A stretch of 64,000 nucleotides of DNA from a virus. A program made the position numbers and the translations under genes. This document shows, one piece after another, positions 1-33,956 of this stretch. Numbering within the stretch: position 1 is the first letter of the stretch; every line of letters starts with the position of its first letter. The stretch is from positions 1 to 64,000 of the IMG/VR virus record IMGVR_UViG_3300025466_000019; one strand, given 5' to 3'. The notes under the pieces are model-generated. The model was not told the DNA's origin, searched no databases, and worked only from the letters and a program-made list of their open reading frames with translations.

Positions 1-3000
1 GCTCCGCTTGCGCCAGTGGCTCCTGTTGCGCCGCTTGCGCCGGTAGCTCCTGTTGCGCCTGAAACTCCGCTTGCGCCTGTAGGTCCTGTTGCGCCGGTGG
101 CTCCTGTTGCGCCGATTGTGCCAGTGGCTCCTGTGTTACCGGATGATCCGGTATATCCAGTTGCACCTGTTGCGCCGGTAGGTCCTGTTGCTCCTGCGGG
201 CCCTGCACTTCCAACACTTCCAATAAACCCAGTAGCTGTGCTAGCCGATCCTGTATATCCCACACTGCCAACAAATCCGGTAATACCAGTGGAACCCACT
301 GATCCAATATATCCAGCAGATCCAGTATATCCGGTAGCGGTACTGGCCGATCCAGTATATCCAGGAGCGGTACTGGCCGATCCAGTATATCCCACGCTGC
401 CAATAAATCCAACGCTTCCGAGATATCCCAAGGAACCGGCGTATCCAGAGGCAGTACTGGCCGATCCAGTATATCCCACGCTGCCAATAAATCCAGCAGA
501 TCCGGTATATCCGGTGGCTGTGCTGGCCGAACCGGTATATCCTTTTGATCCTGAATAGCCAGGAGTGGTACTTATTGGTCCTTGTGATCCAATATAACCA
601 GCCGATCCTGCATATCCTACCGATCCGGTATATCCGGTAGCCGTGCTGGCTGATCCTACATAACCGGACGATCCTGCATATCCTACCGATCCAATAAATC
701 CGCTAGCTGTGCTAGCCGATCCTGTGTATCCGGCACTGCCAATATATCCAGCAGACCCGGTATATCCGGTAGCGGTACTGGCCGATCCTGTGTATCCGGC
801 ACTGCCAATATATCCAGCAGACCCGGTATATCCGGTAGCGGTACTGGCCGATCCTGTGTATCCGGCACTGCCGATAAATCCAACCGATCCAACAAATCCA
901 TTAGTTCCGGTTGATCCAGCAGATCCAGTATATCCTGCACTTCCTGCATATCCAACCGATCCAATATACCCCGAGGCAGTGCTGGCCGAACCGGTATATC
1001 CCACGCTGCCAATAAATCCAACAGATCCAATATATCCTGCACTGCCAATAAATCCAACCGATCCAATAAATCCATTAGTTCCGATTGATCCAGCAGATCC
1101 AGTAAAACCCACTGATCCGTTAAATCCTGGCACACTACTGGCTGATCCGGTGTATCCTCCTGCACTTCCGGTATATCCAACGGATCCTGCATATCCGGAC
1201 GCAGTACTGGCCGATCCTGTGTACCCGCCACCGCTGCCGATATATCCAACTGAACCAATATATCCAGCCACGGTGCTTGCTGATCCAGTATATCCTGCAG
1301 AACCAACAAATCCTGTTGAACCAAGATAACCAACTGATCCTGCATATCCAGACGCAGTACTAGCTGAACCTGTGTATCCTGCTGATCCTATAAATCCTAA
1401 TGAGCCTGTATATCCAAACGATCCAACCGATCCAATAAATCCATTAGTTCCGATTGATCCAGCAGATCCAGTATAACCCACTGATCCGCTAAATCCTGGC
1501 ACACTACTGGCTGATCCGGTGTATCCCCCTGCACTTCCGGTATATCCAACGGAGCCTGCATACCCAGACGCAGTACTGGCCGATCCTGTGTACCCTATTG
1601 AACCGGTAAATCCAATAGATCCGCTGTATCCTGTGGCGGTGCTGGCTGATCCGGTATAACCTATAGAACCAACGTAACCAATTGATCCTGCATATCCAGT
1701 AGTACCGGTAGTTCCTTGTGACCCAATGTATCCAATTGATCCTGTATATCCAATCGATCCTGTATATCCTGATGCAGTGCTGGCAGATCCGGTGTATCCG
1801 GCACTGCCTGTGAATCCAACGGAGCCGGTATAACCAATGCTGCCTGAATAGCCAACGGATCCTGCATATCCAATACTGCCTGTGAATCCAACGGAGCCGG
1901 TATAACCGATGCTGCCTGCATAGCCAACGGATCCTGCATATCCAATACTGCCTGTGAATCCAAAGGATCCATTGTAGCCAATATTACCAGTCGATCCAAC
2001 AAACCCTGCTGATCCTATATATCCAATAGATCCCACAAATCCTGTGGTACCCGTGGAACCAACATAACCAACTGATCCAAAATATCCAACCGATCCGATA
2101 TATCCCGTTGATCCGGTATATCCAGTGGATCCGGTATAGCCAATGCTACCACTATATCCAATACTACCCACAAATCCAGTAGTGCCCGTAGATCCCACTG
2201 ATCCGATATATCCGTAGCTTCCGATATATCCGATTGATCCTGTATATCCTGATGCAGTGCTAGCAGATCCAGTGTACCCGTATGACCCCACAAAGCCAAT
2301 GCTTCCCAAAAATCCAGTGGTTCCAACGGATCCGGTGTAGCCAACGGATCCGGTATAGCCAACGGATCCTACATATCCAATATTGCCTGCCGAACCAAGA
2401 TATCCAACGGCTCCTATTGAACCTATGTATCCAGCTGAACCGGTATAGCCAATACTGCCAACATAACCGATTGATCCTGCAAATCCAGTGGTACCAGTGG
2501 AACCGCCAGACCCAGTATATCCTGTTGATCCAGTGTAACCACGACTTCCTGTGTATCCATTTGGCGGGCCTTGGCTACCCACATACCCACTTGCGGTGCT
2601 GGCCGATCCAGTATAACCAAATACTGCAACGTCGGTGCTAAAAAAAGGACCTGTAATATCTACCCACCAGGTGCCGTCATCGTCAGTAACATATTCGTAC
2701 AATGCGCCGTTGGTGTTATTGTACCAATGATCTCCATTTTGGAATACAGTAGTAGGAGGATTTGACTTGTAATAGCCAGGCAATGATCCTTCGTAATAAT
2801 TTGGAATTCTGTAGCTGGGTCTGCCACCTATGTTAATAAACGAACTTACTGTGTTTGTAAATGTCATGGATCCAGTAATTGATACCAAATTGGTTATCAA
2901 ACTGATTGTGCCCGATGATGTGCTCACAATAAGTGTAATTGTGTTTAATGATGAAATATTTGGAGTTATGACGCCGGTATTAAAGGCCAAATTGCCTAGA

Positions 3001-3173
3001 CTGTTTGTGAATATTGTTCCAGTAGCAGATGATACCAGTGTATAACCAGTACTGGTTGTGGGACTCAATCCTAAATTGGGCTGTGCATTGCTTAGGTCCA
3101 AAAATTGATTTCTTGTTGGACTTAATCGACTGGCAGGTGTGACCAATATACGGCCACTGGTTAAATTAGGCAT
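1..3173 (-). CDS. Collagen-like fibre protein (3' end beyond window)
   Basis: The frame is open from the ATG at 3173 to base 1, giving at least 1057 residues; the C-terminus is outside the window. Residues 1 to about 185 are non-repetitive. From there the protein is Gly-X-Y repeats of the type G-Y-T-G-S-A and G-F-I-G-S-V, broken at intervals by the four residues STAT, STAS or STAP. The last ~75 visible residues change to a plain [12 protein letters not shown] style. Collagen-like triple helices are known in phage fibres and are usually followed by a receptor-binding C-terminus. The start overlaps the stop of the upstream gene by 8 bp, implying coupled translation. No transmembrane segment is visible. 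I infer an adsorption fibre or virion decoration fibre. The repeats make assembly errors possible here. Confidence 0.85.
715..846. repeat. Two identical 66-bp tandem units inside the collagen-like gene
   Basis: Bases 715-780 and 781-846 are the same 66-bp sequence, and a third, diverged unit follows. Each unit codes for 22 residues containing one STAT-type interruption. A longer near-identical dispersed repeat of about 160 bp occurs at roughly 1063-1225 and 1436-1596. These repeats would let the fibre change length by recombination or slippage. Confidence 0.85.
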
Positions 3174-3552
3174 TAGCGGTCTCCAATACGCTAAGTGTTA
3201 TATTACAGGTTCCTGGACTATCTGCATAACATACCACACTATCCAATTGCTCGACGATCATTTTACCATTAACTGCGTTTGCGGCATCATTGGGTGGAAC
3301 CAGAAATGCATCAAGCATTATGGTAGTTACTCCTGCCGGCTGAGCATTATGCCCGCTGGCGTCTGCAAATATAGGAAAGTTCCTTTGATGCGCAAACGTT
3401 ACTGCATGAGCGTTCACTAGATCCAAATTGGCAATCTGTGTCATCAATACGATACTGGTTACTCCGATAGGAGCAGTATAAACCGTAGCAGTGGTGTTGG
3501 TTGTTAACACCGCGGTTATTGTTCTAAATGTGTTTAACGGTAACGATGCCAT
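3166..3552 (-). CDS. Small virion structural protein, fibre-associated (128 aa)
   Basis: It starts with ATG preceded by a clear AAAAGGA ribosome site. The 128 residues are rich in T, V and A with alternating beta-strand character, and no signal peptide or membrane segment is visible. It resembles the 104-residue product of 12168-12482: both have a VYxxP(A/I)G element near the start, a central proline element and a C-terminal half reading like KxIxExxDxIxA. It lies between the giant fibre gene and the collagen-like gene on one transcript. I infer a fibre connector or capping protein. I do not recognise a named family. Confidence 0.6.
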
Positions 3553-3564
3553 GTTGTTTTCCTT

Positions 3565-6500
3565 TTATCTTCCTTCAATCGCTAATATAAACGGTGTCAA
3601 ATTAGCAAACAAGCTCTTAGTAAATGTTCTTCCACTCAATACACCGGTGGCCTGGCTAATTACCAATCCCGGTCCAATCCTAAAATCACCATTTTGATCT
3701 GTTGATGTAAAGAATATCTTACCATTATTTACTTGAACTACTTCCTGTCCCTGTATAGGATCTGCCACTCCTCTCTGGGGCAATGCACTGTATGTCACGC
3801 CAGCACCCACGTATTCAAATGTATAGCCCGAAGCACTCATATAACTTCTTTGATAGAAGTTAACAGTGGCACCGTCTGGAAACAGCAGTGGATTGGATAC
3901 TGTTTCTTCAATTCGCACAATATGATGTGTTCCTGCTCGATACCAATAACTCAATCCGCTGTAAACGCTGTAGTAGTTGGTACCGTAAGTGAGATCATAG
4001 ATCAACTGTTGTAAGATTAGAGCCACGTCGCGCCGACATTTATATTCTTTGAAGGGCAAGGTTGGGTATGTTTGTTTAATATAAACTATAACACTGTCAA
4101 CATAGCTTTGTATATTGTTGGAAATTACGATAATAGCTGCTCCTGCTCCGGCCGGCGGAATAGTAGCCGGAACGGTGCTGGGCTTGACTATGTTGATTGT
4201 GTTGGTAACTGTTGATCCTGACACCTTTGTGGTGTAGGTCACTATATTTCCGCTGGCGTTAACAATTGGTAAAGTCGTAGACGATGTTAAACTGGTGATA
4301 TAGTTTATGGATGTATTAATAAAATTGATAGGTCCTAAGATATTTGCATTGGTTAAAGTGTTAGCTATCAATGTATTGAGATATCGCAAACTGGCCACTT
4401 CCGGACCTATTTGATCTACTTGTACACTTGCTGTGCTAAGAATACTGGTCCCCAATGTGTGTCCAAAGCTGTCATTGATTGTGCTGGAATCCACGGTATA
4501 ATATGCATTACCGCAGAAATAAACATTGAAATAGTTGTTGTTGGTAAACAAGTTTGAGTTGGTAGGATCTTGTCCGCCGTTGCCCAATCCTTGATTCAAT
4601 GTTATTGATTGATAGCCAATGGCAACTATAGTGGTGCCTGGGAATGTGTAAGGCACAAAAATATTATTAGTAGATGTTGTTCCTGTATTTCCATATTGAT
4701 CGCGTATGTATACAGTATTGCCAACTGCTGCACCGGTAGTGTCAATGCCTTTTATTGTGATGCTGCCCGTGGTCAAAACGCCCACACTGGGTGAACCGGT
4801 TAGGAATCCAGGATAGCCTGCAGAATTAATATAGGTGGTAACAGTGTTTAAATATCCATTAAAATAATTCACAGGAGGAACAATTTCCATTAACAGACCA
4901 ATATGCGGTCTATAGCTAGTATCCGGCAAGTATACTTCAAGTGTGCCATTTTGTGGATAATAGCCTAGCGGGAAGTATTGTCCTATAGAGGTTGCAGTTG
5001 ATTGTGAATAGCTGTATATGTAAGTGGGATAAGGCGGATTGTAAATGGTTCCGCTGAATTCTAATGGTCCATGCCCGTTTGATAGCAAGCAAATATCGCC
5101 AAAGTTGCTGTTGCTGTTTACAATACTTGCGATACCACCGTTGTCCACTTGCACGCCCACACTGCAGAAAATGGTGAATACAGATACCAGCTGAGCATAG
5201 CCGTTGTTGGTCACATGTATACCAACACCGCCTTGATTGATCTGCGTGAACGCATCATACACAAATGATTGTATTGGCGAAATATCACTAACTACAGATC
5301 CATCAACGAGACTGCCGCCCATGGCGCCTATAACATCAACTTTTCTGCTGTTCCATGTGCTGGAACTGCCTGTATACTGAAGGCTCAGTGCTTCGACTTG
5401 ACTGTTAGTGGCTGGGAATACTGCAGGGTTTCCAAAATACAGTGTGCCATTTTGCGCATCGCCAATAGTGGGTGTTGATAATTTAATGGTATACACATTG
5501 TTTGAGTTGGTAAAGCTCAGTACCGTTGTACTATTTCTCACATCATCCGAGCTGATTCCTGTTGTGGCAAACAGACCGGATCCGGTAAATGCAGGAGGAG
5601 CAGCATTTGGTCCATTTTGTATCACATTGGTTATGATATGGAAATTTCTGTTGATAGCAGTGGCAGCATATTGACCGCCAATTAGATTGTAGTTGAAATA
5701 TTGTGTAGCTGTTGATGTTATCGTGCTCAAATATCTTGTTACTGTTGAGTTATCAAACGTAGAGCTCACAATGGGTGTATTGCTGATAACATTTAGGCAT
5801 ATGGCGTTCAAGTAGTTTATAGAATCCACACATATTGGAGCTTCTATGGATCCAAGAACCGGTGTAACTCCCATAAATGCAGGTTCGATCACTTGCGGAT
5901 ACACTACTTGATAACTTGGAACTAGCGGTTGATTCTGAATAACAGATGCCATGATATATTTCAAATGATCATAGGCTGCTGCCACTTGAGGTATTTCATT
6001 TCCTGCCGCAGTAACCAGTGCCGATGATGTGTTACTGAATGTATAATAGTACACTCCAGTTTGAATGGTTTGACGATTGCCCCCATGCAGTAGATCAAAA
6101 CTTAAGGCATCAATCATGTTGCCCACATCTCTAGTTAGAGTAGCAGTATTAATACCCAAAGTGTTATACTTGTTGGTAATAGTTGTAACCGTTTGTGTTT
6201 GTAGCACACTTCTGTTGGCCTGTATCAATTCGTATGCCATCACAGTATTGGTGTTGAGTGATGGAAGTCCATTGGGCACAATTAAGTTAGTTACATTGGC
6301 AGTTCCCGAAGTGAGAATATTGGTCAGCGTATTGACATTTGCAGTGATTGTGGCTGTGGATGATAGATAGTATGTTATTATTTGATTGATATAAATGCCC
6401 AGCGTCTGGACAGTGTCTACCGTGGCGGTCAATAGACTTTGAGTACCGGTGGTTAAACCGGCCTGATTCCAATATTGTAAACCAGCAAATGTGCTTTGAG

Positions 6501-19657: not shown

Positions 19658-22639
19658 TTATGCCTTTGGAATGGGAGCGGCAGCTCCTCCGCCGGTAGGG
19701 GTTGGACTGGCAACTCCGGGCTGGCCCGGAGGTTCTTGACCTGTTTGCAGTGTTTCCGATCCTAGATCACTTTGTCCCAAATTGCCTAGATCGCTGCTCA
19801 ATCCTGCAGAAGTTACACCTACCGAACGCATCTCGGCCTGTGCATTTACATTGGCTGCAGACTCAATATTTTCTTCTCTCCACAGTTCTTCATTTTCAGC
19901 GATTTCTTCTGCTGTCAATCCCAAGAATCGTTTCAGGGTGAATCGTTTGCTGAGATAAGGCACTTCGGAAATGGCCTGATATGTGGATACCCTGGCTGTG
20001 TCCATTTCGGCTTGCCTGTGTGCGGCAAAATTTTGAGGAGGATTAAATCTTAAATCAAACAGATTTGGATCAATGTTCATGCCTTTGTTATAAAGGTATA
20101 ACTTGAACTCTTCGTCAAATTTTTCATTGATCAAACTTTGCAGGCGTTCGCAATAGTTATTAAAACGCAGTTCTTGTATGTATGCTGTTCCAACTTTTCC
20201 ATCAGTGAACGCTGCCTGGCTGTCATCTACCCCGGTAGGCAAATAGCTGCTGGGGATACGCAATGCACGCATTAATTTTTGTGTAAAGAACAGCAAGTCA
20301 CTGATTTCACCTAGATTGGTGCCGCCGGGCAATATCTCAACCTTAGATCCTCTGCCCTCGGCAGTTTGCGGAAAGAAATAGTCTTCATTTATGGAGTTTT
20401 TGACAAAAATTCCGCTTTCTATTGCAAATGTGTGGAAGTTGTGCCATTTTTCAGTACCGTCAATGGTTATTGTTCCGGTATCTCTATTTGAAACCGTTTC
20501 AATTTTTACAACTCTATGATTGAAATGGTGGATTTCTCGTACAAACGACTTCCAATTTTTATAACCAAATTTTTCAATCAATCTATCTAATTTACTATAT
20601 CCAAACTTATCAAAGTCAATCTTGCATTGTGCGTTTTTATATTCTAATGTGTTGGAATTTTCCTTGCGCACCATATCTAATAGCGTTTGATCTTTATCGC
20701 ATAAAGAAATTATTTCATTTTTATTCGCACATCCCAATTTAACTTTGTCTGCAATACGTTGCAACATATCAAATGTTAAGTTAAGTGATTGATTTTTGAT
20801 CTTGATTCTGTTTTCTAAATTTTTATTCAGCTTATCTAGAAACTCCGGATGATTAGCAATATATTTTTTCCTAGATTCTGATGCATTCTTTTTATACGAT
20901 GCTATTGTAGCGAGATCAGTCTGTCTCATTATCACTGATTTTTTCTGTGCGGCTCTGATATTCCACAAAGCATCTAACCGTTCTTGCTCAGTTAAATTAG
21001 CCCACCGCTGTTTAAGTGTCGTAGAAATTTTATCAGTCATTTCAAGTCTATATTCCTCGCTCATGGTTTCCCAAAATTCTTTTTTCTGAGAAGCATGATA
21101 CAGAATATGATCCTCTTTGTTCATGTAGGTTAAATTTCTTGGATCGTTATTATATCTATTAGAATCTTTATGATGTATTACAGCTTTTGCTTTGTCTGCA
21201 TTTTCTGGCAGATACGTGAATTCTTGATGTTTGTTAACACTTCTAAAGAATTCTCCAACGATCCTATGTGTCCATTTCCACGATTTAGATGCATGATCCC
21301 AAACCTGTTGATAGGTATTTTTACTATTGGGCATTGCGGTCTGTTGGGTGTTGAACGCAATTAAACTGTCATCAATAGTTAAATCTTTTGCTTGAACAAA
21401 ACCTTTTCCAAATACCGGAATTTTATGATCTGGAGTACATATTAGTTCTTTACCGTTATCAAAGGTCAATTTAATAACAGCCGTGTCTTTTCTTGTAACT
21501 CCTGCCCAATTAATCACGCCTGGAACAATTTCTCCAGTTTCTGGATTGCAACTGTATGCCCAATTTTCTTTTCCTGATTCAAATTCAGATATAAGTTCAG
21601 ATAAGGTCAATGTTCTTCCATCTAACAAAGGAATTTTGGTATTCAAATCCAAACATAAAGGGTTATAACTGGCATCAATCACGCTTTGTCCGCCGCCGGT
21701 AACACTAGGAATACGACGTTGATTGATTTCATTTTTAACACGTTCCACAAAGCTCATGGCCAAGTGACTTGGCATGTTGCCTACGTCAATATAAAATACG
21801 CGGCGTTCCGGTGCACGCTGCACTCGATAGATAATGATGGCATCTTCTAATAATTCTTTTTGTTTGTAGACTTTGAAAATGGTTTCCATCAAGCTGTTGC
21901 CAAACGGAAAGTTATTATCCAGTCCTTCACTAAGGCTCAGATGCACCACATGTTTGGCATCAATGGCCCATTGATTCTGATTGATGGTAAATCTGCTGCC
22001 CATGCTTTGAGGATATGCGCCGACCATGCCTCTCTGTTGGGCTCCGCCGGTCACATAGGCTGTGCCTCCAGGAGTGCTGTTTTGATTGGTAGGAGTGATT
22101 TGTGTTACTGTTAAATTTTGAAAATTGATATTGACATCACGTATCACATACTGTTCAGGTTTCTTGCCTTCACTTTCATTAACAATCACTTTATCAATCT
22201 TGCTGGGATCTATGTAAAACCAAGCGTGTGTTTCGGGATCTCGAATAAAAAAGCAGTCACCGTACTTGAATGTGTTACGGATGATTTTAAAAATCCTATT
22301 GCTGAACTTGTTGAGTTTGGTCCACTGCTGCAGATACTTTTTGATAATTTTAATTTCAGTGGGTGTGGCTTGATCTTTGAAAAAGGCATAGAACGGAGTG
22401 CCATTTTCGTCGTTGAGCTGTGTGCAAAATTCTGCCAATATGTCAAATGCAGCATTGACTTCTGGATCCATGTCCATGGTATCATACTGACTGTATCTTT
22501 CCAAACGATTAGGATGACCACTGTAAACATCTGGCAAATATGATGAATAATTGGTTCTCGCAGGACTAGTGCGTCCAGACTGACTCAATGGACTCATTGA
22601 TCCTGAATTTACTGGGGTAAAATATCTTTTCCACGTCAT
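19658..22639 (-). CDS. 20: Portal vertex protein gp20 containing an intein (993 aa)
   Basis: The precursor joins a 573-residue portal with an intein at residues 329-748. The N-extein shows the T4-like portal pattern (YDTMDMDPEVNAAFDILAE, then KHVVHLSLSEGLDN, RVQRAPERRVFYIDVGNMP, IPSVTGGGQSVIDASYNPL). The C-extein resumes SINEDYFFPQTAEGRGSK and SSYLPTGVDDSQAAFTDGKVG. The portal forms the dodecameric DNA channel and starts prohead assembly. Splicing would join NPL to SINEDYF in the most conserved part of the protein, so an unspliced precursor should be inactive. T4 gp20 is 524 residues. It follows the tape-measure gene by 6 bp. Confidence 0.93.
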   Translation of the reverse strand: MTWKRYFTPVNSGSMSPLSQSGRTSPARTNYSSYLPDVYSGHPNRLERYSQYDTMDMDPEVNAAFDILAEFCTQLNDENGTPFYAFFKDQATPTEIKIIKKYLQQWTKLNKFSNRIFKIIRNTFKYGDCFFIRDPETHAWFYIDPSKIDKVIVNESEGKKPEQYVIRDVNINFQNLTVTQITPTNQNSTPGGTAYVTGGAQQRGMVGAYPQSMGSRFTINQNQWAIDAKHVVHLSLSEGLDNNFPFGNSLMETIFKVYKQKELLEDAIIIYRVQRAPERRVFYIDVGNMPSHLAMSFVERVKNEINQRRIPSVTGGGQSVIDASYNPLCLDLNTKIPLLDGRTLTLSELISEFESGKENWAYSCNPETGEIVPGVINWAGVTRKDTAVIKLTFDNGKELICTPDHKIPVFGKGFVQAKDLTIDDSLIAFNTQQTAMPNSKNTYQQVWDHASKSWKWTHRIVGEFFRSVNKHQEFTYLPENADKAKAVIHHKDSNRYNNDPRNLTYMNKEDHILYHASQKKEFWETMSEEYRLEMTDKISTTLKQRWANLTEQERLDALWNIRAAQKKSVIMRQTDLATIASYKKNASESRKKYIANHPEFLDKLNKNLENRIKIKNQSLNLTFDMLQRIADKVKLGCANKNEIISLCDKDQTLLDMVRKENSNTLEYKNAQCKIDFDKFGYSKLDRLIEKFGYKNWKSFVREIHHFNHRVVKIETVSNRDTGTITIDGTEKWHNFHTFAIESGIFVKNSINEDYFFPQTAEGRGSKVEILPGGTNLGEISDLLFFTQKLMRALRIPSSYLPTGVDDSQAAFTDGKVGTAYIQELRFNNYCERLQSLINEKFDEEFKLYLYNKGMNIDPNLFDLRFNPPQNFAAHRQAEMDTARVSTYQAISEVPYLSKRFTLKRFLGLTAEEIAENEELWREENIESAANVNAQAEMRSVGVTSAGLSSDLGNLGQSDLGSETLQTGQEPPGQPGVASPTPTGGGAAAPIPKA
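20396..21655 (-). other. Intein with HNH homing endonuclease inside gp20 (420 aa)
   Basis: The intein begins with Cys329 (CLDLNTKIPLLDGRTLTL, block A) and has block B with TPDHK at precursor 402-406. The end is HNFHTFAIESGIFVKN with Asn748, followed by Ser as the +1 residue. Between the splicing blocks is an HNH-type nuclease (AVIHHKDSNRYNNDPRNLTYM, HH at precursor 489-490), then a Lys-rich NUMOD-like stretch. The penultimate residue is Lys instead of the usual His, which occurs in some active inteins. All splicing blocks look intact. Confidence 0.9.
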
Positions 22640-30401: not shown

Positions 30402-30651
30402 TTTTTTTCCTTTCTTTGATTTTTCTACGTTCAACTATTCTCTGTCTTTTTTCTTCTAGCATTTTGGTTCTAGTAATGGTACAATTTCTTCTCATTTCTG
30501 CAACTAATTTTTTAAGTCGTTTCATTACCTTGGTAATGCTTTCGGAATTATAATAATTTGGTCTTCTAATAAATCTTAAATGAGCATTGTGATACTCGGC
30601 TAAAAGATCAATAAATTCTTTATGTAATTCTATGTACTTGTTTATCATCAT
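30343..30651 (-). CDS. Small helical basic protein of unknown function (102 aa)
   Basis: It begins at the ATG overlapping the gp46 stop by 4 bp, so it is translationally coupled. The sequence is helical and charged (HKEFIDLLAEYHNAHLRFIRR, then VMKRLKKLVAEMRRN) and ends in Asn-rich NTNINTNADINPGINNN, which is the alternate reading of the repeat that gives the neighbour its Thr/Pro tract. No family is recognised. Basic charge suggests nucleic-acid contact, but this is only a guess. Confidence 0.55.
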   Translation of the reverse strand: MMINKYIELHKEFIDLLAEYHNAHLRFIRRPNYYNSESITKVMKRLKKLVAEMRRNCTITRTKMLEEKRQRIVERRKIKERKKNENTNINTNADINPGINNN

Positions 30652-32639
30652 GCATCAATCCAGTCGGCTGAATTTGAATAAGATGTAAATCCGGATTCTT
30701 TTACCACTCGTAGTACATTGTTTACTCTTCCGATCAATTCCTCTTTGTGTGAAATCAGGAAAATGTTTTTATTTCTTTCTCTGGCCATCTTTTTTAACAC
30801 ACTTAGCCCTGCTTCAACACCTGCGGAATCCATGCCAGAATCTATCAACTCGTCAATAAACAGCAGATTGATGGGTTTATACAAGTTTTCCCAAACATCT
30901 CGAAAGGCAAAACTCATGCTCAATATCAGTCTGTTACGTTCGCCTCGTGAAAGATTATCAAAATCTAGATCTTGACCAAAATTGGTGATTTCAACCGATA
31001 AATCATTTTGAAAAACCACCATATGAGGTAATCCCAATTTGTCTATGTAATAGCTTAGTCGTTTGTTGAGATAATTTAAATTTTGATCGATGATCTTTTT
31101 GCGTATAAAACTTTCTTTATTGGTCAGCAGCTTCAATAGGAATTCTTGATGTTCTTTTAAATTGTTTAATTCGTTGATCTTGTGCCATGCAATTTCCTGC
31201 AATGCGGTTTTTTCTAATTCTTCAATTTGTTCCTGATAGGGATTTTCATCCTGTTTTCTGTCAATCAATGTTTTCTCTAAAGAGTTAACTTGACTTTTAT
31301 GATTGAGTGCATCGGCCTGTGTGGGATAAAACACAGTGGGCTTGTTGCCAATCTCGCCCACACCGTGAATCTGATCCACTACATTTTGCAATGTTTGATA
31401 CACAGCATCATAATAATCTGTGGCATCTTTTAGATTGTGTTCAGCGTCATGCACCAAGTTGGTATGCTTGTGATCCTGAAGAGTCTGTTCACACTGAGGA
31501 CATTTTCGATCCGCCAATGCTGCAATTTCTCTTTGATATTTTTTAACCGACTTGTCCGCCTGTGACAATGCAGACTCGTAACTGATTTTTTGTCTGCGTA
31601 AATCCGTCAGCTGGTTATTTTTTTCCTGCCACAGAGCGAGGCCGGCATGATCGCTCAATTCCTGTTCAATGTCAATGGCTTGCAAGGTCACGATGGCATC
31701 ACTGAGATCTTGTAAATCGGAGGTCTTTTTATTTTCCCATGCGGTACTTTTTAGTATCAAAGAATTGATACTGCGTTGCACACTTTCGTTGGCTGTTTTT
31801 ATGCTTTCAATTTTAATCTGTTCGGTTTGTATAGAATCCTTAGAAGATTTAATCAACAGTTTGAGTGTTTCGGCCTTTTCACTCAGCAAAGTGATGCCCA
31901 GCAGTTGTTCAATCACTTCTCGTTGATCCGCAGCCTTCATGGAAAGAAAAGGTTCGGTATATGTGTTCAAGGCTACTAGATGTTTGAACATGGTATGACT
32001 CATGCCCAACTTGTGTTCTATGAATTTTTGCGTTTCTCTGCTGTCGCCCTGCGCATCATCGTCCTTGCTTTCATGCTCGTGATTATTGATGAAAACCTTG
32101 AGCACGTTTGGTTTTCGACCTCGTTCAATGCGTATAAGTTCGCCGTCATTTTCAAACTCGCCGGTGACCAACATGTTCTTGCCGTTGATTTTGTTGATCA
32201 AGTTTTCTTTCTTGATATTGGACAACGCCTGCCCAAACCACAGATAGGACAATGAATTAATAATGGTCGTGTTGTGTGATAATATGCCGTTGGTATAGTA
32301 TCTGTGATCTGCCGAATCTACTGTGATATCAAACATGTTTTCTGTTCTATCGGACACAGACAGCGAGGTAACTAGTTCTGGACCATGCTGGGTCTGCACA
32401 TATGAGCTTGGTTTGATATGCTTGACGAATTTTTCGTTGAGCTTTTCATCAAACAAGATATGATCATCTGCGCACTCAAGCATTTTTCCGGATTCTGTTT
32501 GAATAGTCCAAACTTGATATGGCACAGTTTTCATTATTTTAGAAATGGGTTTCCACCCAGAATCTGTTTCTATCTCAAGATTCTGCAAATCCACACTGTC
32601 GACAAATTTTCTGTTCACTGTGTCAGAAATTGAATGCAT
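30648..32639 (-). CDS. 46: gp46 C-terminal part preceded by C-terminal split intein fragment (663 aa)
   Basis: Residues 1-123 are the C-terminal part of an intein: SGKMLECADDHILFD is block B and the end is DSADHRYYTNGILSHN. The extein then continues TTIINSLSYLWFGQAL from residue 124 to 663. It has the Rad50-like coiled coil, the zinc hook CPQC (LADRKCPQCEQTL), the ABC signature LSRGERNRLILS and Walker B LLFIDELID. Walker A is completed only after splicing with the upstream fragment (GSRNGTGK + TT). gp46 with gp47 is the T4 recombination nuclease used in replication and host DNA degradation. The start ATG has AGGA ten bases upstream. Confidence 0.93.
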   Translation of the reverse strand: MHSISDTVNRKFVDSVDLQNLEIETDSGWKPISKIMKTVPYQVWTIQTESGKMLECADDHILFDEKLNEKFVKHIKPSSYVQTQHGPELVTSLSVSDRTENMFDITVDSADHRYYTNGILSHNTTIINSLSYLWFGQALSNIKKENLINKINGKNMLVTGEFENDGELIRIERGRKPNVLKVFINNHEHESKDDDAQGDSRETQKFIEHKLGMSHTMFKHLVALNTYTEPFLSMKAADQREVIEQLLGITLLSEKAETLKLLIKSSKDSIQTEQIKIESIKTANESVQRSINSLILKSTAWENKKTSDLQDLSDAIVTLQAIDIEQELSDHAGLALWQEKNNQLTDLRRQKISYESALSQADKSVKKYQREIAALADRKCPQCEQTLQDHKHTNLVHDAEHNLKDATDYYDAVYQTLQNVVDQIHGVGEIGNKPTVFYPTQADALNHKSQVNSLEKTLIDRKQDENPYQEQIEELEKTALQEIAWHKINELNNLKEHQEFLLKLLTNKESFIRKKIIDQNLNYLNKRLSYYIDKLGLPHMVVFQNDLSVEITNFGQDLDFDNLSRGERNRLILSMSFAFRDVWENLYKPINLLFIDELIDSGMDSAGVEAGLSVLKKMARERNKNIFLISHKEELIGRVNNVLRVVKESGFTSYSNSADWIDA

Positions 32640-33715
32640 TTTTCTATGGTTCCTGTCTTATCTTTTTTGAAATCTGATTCCCATACCACTAATACTTCAT
32701 AGCCTTGATCAAAGGCGACCTTTAATTTTATACGGTCGATCTCCCATCTGTCAATGGCTTTGATTTTTGTTCTTGGATTTATATGTTCTGATGAATATTT
32801 CTTTGGGTTACTGTGCCAAAAATCGCCATTATATTCAATAATTTTTTTGCCAACATTTATGTCATAGACATATTGCTTTTTATCTGACTTATTCAATGTG
32901 AATTGATGTTCTACTGATGGAAATATTTTCTTTACTTCAGCAAGGATTATTTTTTCAGCAGCAGAGACAGTGATTCCTTTTGATAATTTCAATCGATTAA
33001 TTCTAGCTTTCTCTTCTGGTAATTTAGCACTTAATGTTGCTTGCCACTTATCCTGTCTCGCTTGCCAAATTGATATTCCGTTTTCTTCTCCATATTTTTG
33101 TACACAGATATCTTTGGAAAAATATTTTTGATTCTCTGATACCAGCTCTTTTGCTTCATCAATGGAATATCCTCTAGCAGTGTAGTATTCTTCACATCTT
33201 TTCGATGTTGCTCTTCGGATATGTTTATCCATCCCAATTTTAGCACCTTTTTTATTATTTTTTTGTTTGGTATCCGATGCTAACTGTGCGGCATCTATTT
33301 CAGAGTAACCCTGTTTGATCCAATACTCTGCTCTAATGGGTCTACGACTATTACGTTCAAAATCTGCTTCATCTACCGTATAGTTTGTTCCAGTGACTGG
33401 ATTGATTTTTTCCAACCAAGTTTTGCGACTGTACACACTTTTACAGTTTTTTTGTTTGTTTTCTTTGGATTTGATGTGAGATTCTGCATCAGTCCATCCT
33501 CGAGACAGCCAGTATACTTTGGTATGTTTTGATAGTGTTGTGGTTAGATTCAATTTGCTTCTCAAAAACTTTTCAATGATCTTTTTATTATTTTCAATAT
33601 TAGATTCTAATAGTTCGTGTAGAAGATTCTGATACAGATCAGATTTGAGATTTTTAATAGTATTATTCAAGATATCTTTGCAGTTATTTTCTAGACTGTT
33701 GTTCCAACGCGGCAT
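32615..33715 (-). CDS. Vsr-like homing endonuclease between the split gp46 genes (366 aa)
   Basis: The C-terminal ~110 residues form a very-short-patch-repair-like nuclease: SAAEKIILAEVKKIFP, YVYDINVGKKIIEYNGDFWHS (Asp285, Glu294, Trp300-His301), WEIDRIKLKVAFDQGYEVLVVWE. The N-terminal half has three copies of a DNA-binding-like repeat with core YW(L/I)xx(R/Q)G(W/Y)SxxEA, near residues 68, 131 and 177. This endonuclease class is known in fractured phage genes. It overlaps the upstream fragment by 32 bp and the downstream fragment by 25 bp, with GGGAG before its start. It is the mobile driver of the split-intein locus, inferred from its position. Confidence 0.85.
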   Translation of the reverse strand: MPRWNNSLENNCKDILNNTIKNLKSDLYQNLLHELLESNIENNKKIIEKFLRSKLNLTTTLSKHTKVYWLSRGWTDAESHIKSKENKQKNCKSVYSRKTWLEKINPVTGTNYTVDEADFERNSRRPIRAEYWIKQGYSEIDAAQLASDTKQKNNKKGAKIGMDKHIRRATSKRCEEYYTARGYSIDEAKELVSENQKYFSKDICVQKYGEENGISIWQARQDKWQATLSAKLPEEKARINRLKLSKGITVSAAEKIILAEVKKIFPSVEHQFTLNKSDKKQYVYDINVGKKIIEYNGDFWHSNPKKYSSEHINPRTKIKAIDRWEIDRIKLKVAFDQGYEVLVVWESDFKKDKTGTIEKCIQFLTQ

Positions 33716-33956
33716 TGTATAATTCTCCCATGGTCAGTTGGGTTATTTCACCAGTTACAGTGTTCCTAACCTTTACTAATGTATTTATACAAACACACTT
33801 GCCAGTGCCATTCCTGCTGCCGGTATCGTCGCCGCCTAGATCGAGATTGGCACCCAGCACCAAGGTCAGCATTTCTTTGCTGAAATCCACAGCCTGAGTC
33901 TGTTGACCCACGCTCATAAAATTCTTTACAGTCAAATTTTTGATTTTCAAGGTCAT
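33684..33956 (-). CDS. 46: gp46 N-terminal part fused to N-terminal split intein fragment (90 aa)
   Basis: Residues 1-53 are the start of gp46 (KIKNLTVKNFMSVGQQTQAVDF, ending GSRNGTGK, most of Walker A). From Cys54 there are 37 intein residues (CVCINTLVKVRNTVTGEITQ and LTMGELYNAALEQQSRK), then a stop. Cysteine directly after the Walker A lysine is the splice junction, and block A is intact. Such a very short N-fragment corresponds to atypically split inteins such as AceL-TerL. Start overlaps the gp47 stop (ATGA). Alone this fragment is useless as an ATPase, so trans-splicing is required to make gp46. Confidence 0.9.
   Translation of the reverse strand: MTLKIKNLTVKNFMSVGQQTQAVDFSKEMLTLVLGANLDLGGDDTGSRNGTGKCVCINTLVKVRNTVTGEITQLTMGELYNAALEQQSRK

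What the first reader, a model, noticed from the sequence alone, without database searches (positions are those of the whole stretch)
30648..33956. gp46 is made by an atypically split intein with a Vsr-type endonuclease gene between the halves
The sequence shows three overlapping genes: gp46 residues 1-53 plus 37 intein residues; a Vsr-like endonuclease; and 123 intein residues plus gp46 residues 54-593. The break lies between splicing blocks A and B, not at the usual site after block B. Known atypically split inteins (for example AceL-TerL) have such a short N-fragment and a similar C-terminus (ITNGVVSHN there, YTNGILSHN here). The insertion is inside Walker A (GSRNGTGK / TT), so splicing is needed to make an active ATPase. 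Natural split inteins with an endonuclease between the halves were described from marine metagenomes as fractured genes. I know of no report in gp46 combined with this split position. A very short (37 aa) N-intein is also useful for protein ligation.
Basis: partly seen in the sequence, partly recalled or inferred. Interest (0 to 1): 0.9.

Follow-up and report, generated by a model that had tools for sequence, protein, structure and literature searches.

The report
Split intein interrupting phage gene gp46
A phage DNA-repair gene is broken into two genes by a self-splicing protein element (an intein) with a DNA-cutting gene sitting between the halves; this is a real, recurring arrangement of a known kind, here found in a repair ATPase, where the two protein halves must be stitched together to work.

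Summary
On the minus strand, gp46 (the phage Rad50/SbcC subunit) is encoded as three overlapping genes: gp46 residues 1-53 plus a 37-aa intein N-fragment; a 366-aa endonuclease of the Vsr/EDxHD type; and a 123-aa intein C-fragment plus the remaining 540 aa of gp46. The break lies exactly inside Walker A (GTGK|TT), where intact relatives have no insert. It is not an artefact: about 30 contigs carry the same three-gene order with gp46 C-halves roughly 50-66% identical, and all parts show purifying selection. The intein C-fragment is predicted to fold like the atypically split VidaL and Cat (TerL-type) inteins, and the split position matches AceL-TerL/GOS-TerL. The same intein family occurs at the P-loops of TerL, UvsX-type, UvsW-type and gp41-type genes. 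In gp46 it carries exchangeable nucleases (Vsr-like, GIY-YIG-like) and also occurs split without a nuclease. Best explanation: a trans-splicing 'fractured gene' maintained by a homing endonuclease; splicing and homing are inferred, not shown. Fractured genes and atypical split inteins are published kinds; I found no report in gp46, but the key 2009 survey was not readable here. New member of a known kind.

The parts
33684..33956 (-). gene for gp46 N-extein (residues 1-53) plus intein N-fragment (37 aa)
   Evidence: phrog_77 positions 294-333
33798..33956 (-). gp46 N-extein, ending in the first part of Walker A (GSRNGTGK)
   Evidence: 68-90% identical to N-ends of intact gp46 in L003-L080, which continue directly into the C-extein
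33687..33797 (-). intein N-fragment CVCINTLVKVRNTVTGEITQLTMGELYNAALEQQSRK (block A, Cys1)
   Evidence: conserved in the gp46 loci, lengths mostly 31-39 aa
33724..33729 (-). ribosome-binding-like GGGAGA 8 nt before the endonuclease ATG, made of intein codons
   Evidence: similar GGAG-type sequence in nearly all relatives
32615..33715 (-). 366-aa Vsr/EDxHD-type putative homing endonuclease gene, overlapping both neighbours
32618..32968 (-). nuclease domain of that gene (about residues 250-366; IIEYNGDFWH core)
   Evidence: invariant D285 E294 G297 D298 W300 H301; fold match to I-Bth0305I and Vsr
32650..32654 (-). AGGAA 10 nt before the ATG of the C-gene, inside endonuclease codons
   Evidence: GAGGAA(G) at about the same place in most relatives
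30648..32639 (-). gene for intein C-fragment (123 aa) plus gp46 C-extein (540 aa)
32271..32639 (-). intein C-fragment (blocks B, F, G; ends in HN, next residue Thr)
30651..32270 (-). gp46 C-extein, starting at the Thr-Thr of Walker A
   Evidence: phrog_77 positions 334-953, 294.7 bits
33953..34966 (-). gp47 (SbcD/Mre11-like) directly upstream, 4-nt overlap with the gp46 N-gene
   Evidence: phrog_100 E 7.2e-61

Best explanation
gp46 is a 'fractured gene'. Two separately translated proteins, gp46(1-53)-IntN and IntC-gp46(54-593), associate through an atypically split (S2-type) class 1 intein; Cys1, the penultimate His, the terminal Asn and the Thr of the C-extein carry out trans-splicing, giving a full-length gp46 with a closed Walker A. 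The gene between the halves is a separate homing endonuclease that cuts Walker-A DNA of intein-free gp46 genes and so spreads the cassette. Shown by sequence: gene order, exact insertion site, intein motifs, fold class, purifying selection, patchy distribution. Inferred: that splicing occurs, that the endonuclease cuts the empty site, and that homing spreads it.
For: Exact insertion: intact relatives run N-extein into C-extein without gap. About 30 contigs keep the same order, similar overlaps and the same reading-frame relations; 37 distinct gp46 C-junctions were recovered. Intein residues A57 D58 H60 (block B), M102 D104, H122 N123 are invariant in 28 C-fragments from several gene types; 93 of 94 distinct junctions read HN|T/S/C. 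AlphaFold model of the C-fragment (pLDDT 87.5) is closest to VidaL and Cat, both atypically split. Median dN/dS 0.24 IntN, 0.14 IntC, 0.15 endonuclease, 0.16 C-extein, the last from only 2 unsaturated pairs. The gp46 tree needs at least 3 changes of intein presence, and the window's nearest relative is intein-free. No second gp46 in the record. In L193, L195 and L228 the halves persist without a nuclease, and in L171 with a 36-aa nuclease stub.
Against: No splicing, protein or cleavage data exist here. The block B Thr is Ala (ADDH), which is conserved in the family but not canonical. The match to Vsr is weak by sequence (E 0.066) and by whole-chain fold E-value (0.056-0.077; probability 0.99-1.00). 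The record is an 88-kb fragment, so an intact gp46 elsewhere in the genome is not excluded. The intein-free loci were collected by similarity to this gp46 and the intein-bearing ones mostly by similarity to the endonuclease, so the tree is a biased sample.
Confidence: 0.9

Rival explanations
1. Gene in pieces without splicing: the halves of gp46 work as a non-covalent pair or are inactive, as when an endonuclease breaks a reductase gene without an intein.
For: A phage gene broken by an endonuclease that stays functional as two peptides is known (cited in PMC10448857).
Against: A complete set of intein motifs and a Hint-like fold are kept under purifying selection; the break cuts the P-loop itself, with only 53 aa on one side; halves keep the intein even where the nuclease is gone.
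Confidence: 0.05
2. One precursor by frameshifting or read-through: ribosomes pass from the N-gene through the endonuclease into the C-gene and the intein splices in cis.
For: The frame relations between the three genes are constant in the gp46 loci with this endonuclease type.
Against: No conserved slippery sequence in either overlap; the N-gene stop varies in position; each inner start codon has its own ribosome-binding-like sequence; in L193 and L228 the halves lie in different frames with no nuclease.
Confidence: 0.03
3. Assembly or sequencing artefact joining unrelated genes.
For: Metagenomic origin.
Against: 9,480 of 9,480 nt identical in another contig, which may come from the same population, and many diverged contigs with the same structure.
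Confidence: 0.01

Closest known systems
Atypically split TerL inteins (AceL-TerL, GOS-TerL, Cat consensus)
   Same: Short IntN split after the first helix (S2 position), large IntC, Cys1 (AceL, Cat), phage P-loop ATPase host; GOS-TerL IntN is also 37 aa (PMC11766414, PMC13014065); best PDB sequence hit is Cat 6dsl
   Different: Host gene is gp46, and the +1 residue is Thr rather than Cys as listed for the TerL inteins (PMC11766414)
Fractured genes of Dassa et al. 2009
   Same: Conserved enzyme broken by a split intein with a free-standing Vsr-related endonuclease gene in between (from my own knowledge of the abstract; paper not held)
   Different: Here the split site is atypical; whether gp46 was among the eight gene types could not be checked
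AceL NrdHF fractured gene
   Same: Fractured organisation with an intervening endonuclease in an Antarctic phage-like contig (PMC7891396)
   Different: Class 3 intein, typical 98/48 split, GIY-YIG nuclease
VidaL atypically split intein (6vgv)
   Same: Closest solved fold to the C-fragment
   Different: Split at S1 with a 16-aa IntN (PMC13014065)
I-Bth0305I / EDxHD endonucleases and Vsr
   Same: Nuclease domain fold and E, D, H core residues
   Different: Low sequence similarity; long helical N-terminal region with no solved relative found
Contiguous TerL mini-inteins of Ackermannviridae (PhaxI, Kuja)
   Same: Same intein family (41-53% identity) at Walker A
   Different: One unbroken gene, no endonuclease

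Membership tests
Split inteins | Nucleophile at position 1, block B His, block F Asp, penultimate His and terminal Asn, nucleophilic +1 residue | tested here: met
   Cys1; ADDH; D104; H122 N123; Thr+1; conserved across relatives
Split inteins | Halves encoded by separate genes with host-protein fragments outside | tested here: met
Split inteins | Protein trans-splicing activity | not testable with these tools
   needs expression and mass spectrometry
Atypically (S2) split inteins | IntN of about 15-37 aa, break before block B, after the first helix | tested here: met
   IntN 37 aa (31-39 in relatives); block B in IntC; nearest folds VidaL and Cat
Fractured genes | Free-standing endonuclease gene between the two intein halves in a conserved enzyme gene | tested here: met
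Vsr/EDxHD homing endonucleases | Nuclease fold and catalytic E/D/H residues | tested here: met
   3r3p probability 1.00, 1cw0/1vsr 0.99, though E 0.056-0.077; D285, E294, D298, H301 invariant
Vsr/EDxHD homing endonucleases | Cleavage of the intein-free allele | not testable with these tools
   needs a cleavage assay
T4-type gp46 | Rad50/SbcC family, next to gp47 | tested here: met
   phrog_77 and phrog_100

The most novel reading that the evidence does not exclude
One lineage of mobile cassette, an S2-split intein whose coding ends double as start signals for a swappable nuclease gene, has specialised on the P-loops of phage recombination and packaging ATPases (gp46, UvsX, UvsW, gp41, TerL). 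In the recombination genes, splicing would activate machinery that the cassette needs for its own homing, which would help keep it in place.
Probability: 0.35. Interest if true: 0.65.

Novelty: new member of a known kind. Interest (0 to 1): 0.5.

Why it matters
It adds a recombination ATPase as host for atypically split inteins and gives dozens of natural pairs with short N-fragments and mostly Thr+1 junctions, useful for protein ligation. The gp46 loci show side by side intein-free, nuclease-bearing, nuclease-swapped, nuclease-decaying and nuclease-less split states, which makes models of how split inteins arise and persist directly testable.

Tried and rejected
Group I intron (no Rfam match); frameshift or read-through precursor (no conserved slippery site); artefact; second intact gp46 in the record. 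Salicola phage SCTP-2 looked like a match to the split gene but has a contiguous Ala1 intein with LAGLIDADG-like motifs at the same site and no detectable similarity to this one. Sequence search of the PDB with the endonuclease found nothing useful. The promoter/terminator scan was little above chance. Literature searches for gp46, Rad50 or SbcC with intein gave no report of this; Dassa 2009 and Bachmann 2015 were not held. Laying the whole genome in the Python box was not possible.

Full report
What is there. On the minus strand, directly after gp47 (phrog_100), lie three overlapping ORFs: 33684-33956 (90 aa), 32615-33715 (366 aa) and 30648-32639 (663 aa). The outer two match the SbcC-like family phrog_77 at adjoining profile positions, 294-333 and 334-953: together they are one complete gp46, broken between GTGK and TT of Walker A. 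The inner 37 and 123 residues are intein: Pfam Intein_splicing E 3.4e-7 when joined, TIGR01443 above its cut-off, PDB best hit the consensus atypical split intein Cat (6dsl, E 3.9e-6).

It is real and recurrent. Another IMG/VR contig is identical over 9,480 nt; it may be the same population, so it is weak as independent evidence. Strong evidence comes from diverged relatives: about 30 contigs (L002, L082-L108, L129, L130) have gp46 C-halves roughly 50-66% identical to this one, and those that are complete keep the same order, the same frame relations and similar overlaps; L107, L129 and L130 are cut off at the N side, and L108 has frameshifts. Intact gp46 genes (L003-L080) run from N-extein to C-extein without a base gained or lost. 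In a gp46 tree the label changes at least 3 times on well supported branches, and the window's nearest relative, L003, is intein-free. The sampling is biased, and gain cannot be separated from loss.

The intein. Across 28 C-fragments from several gene types the block B A-D-x-H, Met102/Asp104 and the terminal His-Asn are invariant; 93 of 94 distinct junctions end HN followed by T (65), S (18) or C (10). The AlphaFold model of the C-fragment (mean pLDDT 87.5) has as nearest solved structures VidaL and Cat, both atypically split. Published natural atypical split sites are S1 (VidaL, PolB16) and S2, after the first helix (AceL-TerL, GOS-TerL) (PMC13014065). The break here, after TMGELYNAALEQQ, fits S2 by sequence position, and GOS-TerL likewise has a 37-aa IntN (PMC11766414).

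The gene in the middle. Its C-terminal domain carries invariant D285, E294, G297, D298, W300 and H301. Sequence similarity to Vsr is marginal (E 0.066), but the predicted fold matches I-Bth0305I and Vsr with Foldseek probability 0.99-1.00 at weak E-values (0.056-0.077); unrelated hits with low probability rank among them because of the long helical N-terminal part. In L109 and L110 about 240 N-terminal residues are 47-49% identical but the nuclease domain is replaced; in L109 it is a T5orf172 (GIY-YIG-type) domain (E 0.0074, just under the Pfam cut-off). Other gp46 loci hold further Vsr-like types (L160, L172, L176, L179, L198; L177, L203, L206, L214, L215) or GIY-YIG-like ones (L192, L207, L220); those not were sorted by eye.

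Translation. A GGAG-type sequence 7-9 nt before the endonuclease start is formed by intein codons, and a GAGGAA-type sequence about 10 nt before the C-gene start is formed by endonuclease codons, in most relatives. The overlaps show no conserved slippery sequence. This favours three separate proteins.

Selection. Median pairwise dN/dS in 14 gp46 loci is 0.24 for IntN, 0.15 for the endonuclease, 0.14 for IntC. Synonymous sites are near saturation, most of all in the C-extein (only 2 usable pairs), and overlaps constrain IntN, so these values are rough. IntC is more alike than the C-extein in 71 of 91 pairs, as expected of a horizontally moving element, though different constraint could also explain it.

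Family picture. Among 94 distinct junctions, clusters fall into TerL (48), gp46 (37, two subfamilies), UvsW-like (4), UvsX/RecA-like (3) and a gp41/DnaB-like helicase (1), with one short gp46 fragment standing alone; the names other than gp46 rest on my reading of the sequences. Some of the TerL junctions may belong to further inteins in the same genes. Split halves without a nuclease occur in L193, L195 and L228; L171 keeps a 36-aa fusion of the two ends of the nuclease gene. More than 300 isolated-phage records carry relatives of the C-fragment, mostly in TerL; in the two Ackermannviridae I opened (PhaxI, Kuja) the intein is contiguous and without nuclease. So unbroken, fractured and split-without-nuclease states all exist.

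Explanation. The best-supported account is trans-splicing of gp46 from two proteins, with the middle gene as homing endonuclease for the Walker-A site. Sequence anatomy, site and conservation are shown; splicing, cutting and homing are inferred from the families. T4 literature lists gp46/gp47 as possible participants in homing repair (PMC2988022), hence the more speculative idea that splicing switches on machinery used by the element itself.

Novelty. Fractured genes with Vsr-related endonucleases (Dassa 2009, from memory) and atypically split inteins are known; a GIY-YIG nuclease in a fractured gene is known too (PMC7891396). gp46 as host is not reported in any paper I could search, but the 2009 gene list could not be read. 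I file this as a new member of a known kind.

Noticed in passing
window 19658-22639 (-): The portal protein (T4 gp20 family) holds a second, contiguous intein with an HNH nuclease motif (Intein_splicing E 1.3e-9, HNH_3 E 1.4e-4).
   Followed up: partly
L238 (Pseudomonas phage PA5oct, NC_071039) 1223-4229: An isolated phage appears to have a fractured UvsX: an 81-aa N-gene with about 17 intein residues, a 477-aa Vsr-like endonuclease, and a C-gene annotated with mass-spectrometry support; the first two are annotated as hypothetical, the last as UvsX-like.
   Followed up: partly
L109 2847-3896; L134 4581-5588: Endonuclease whose N-terminal part resembles the window's but whose nuclease domain is GIY-YIG-like: apparent swap of the catalytic domain (L134 judged by eye).
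   Followed up: partly
L171 4333-4872: Endonuclease gene reduced by internal deletion to a 36-aa stub between persisting intein halves.
   Followed up: partly
L153 2352-5117 (Salicola phage SCTP-2): Contiguous intein starting with Ala and carrying LAGLIDADG-like motifs in gp46 at the same Walker-A site; annotated as hypothetical protein.
   Followed up: partly
L144 about 3500-4711: In a UvsW-like gene the intein N-fragment is fused in frame to the endonuclease, with the C-fragment separate.
   Followed up: no
L114, L124, L131, L134: TerL genes with the split intein at Walker A also seem to carry a further intein at RGKS|C.
   Followed up: no
L046-L048, L055-L057, L061, L064-L067: About 800 nt inserted between gp47 and gp46 in intein-free relatives.
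   Followed up: no
L154 3036-4058 (Caulobacter phage Cr30): Relative of the endonuclease standing free just upstream of an intein-free terminase gene.
   Followed up: no
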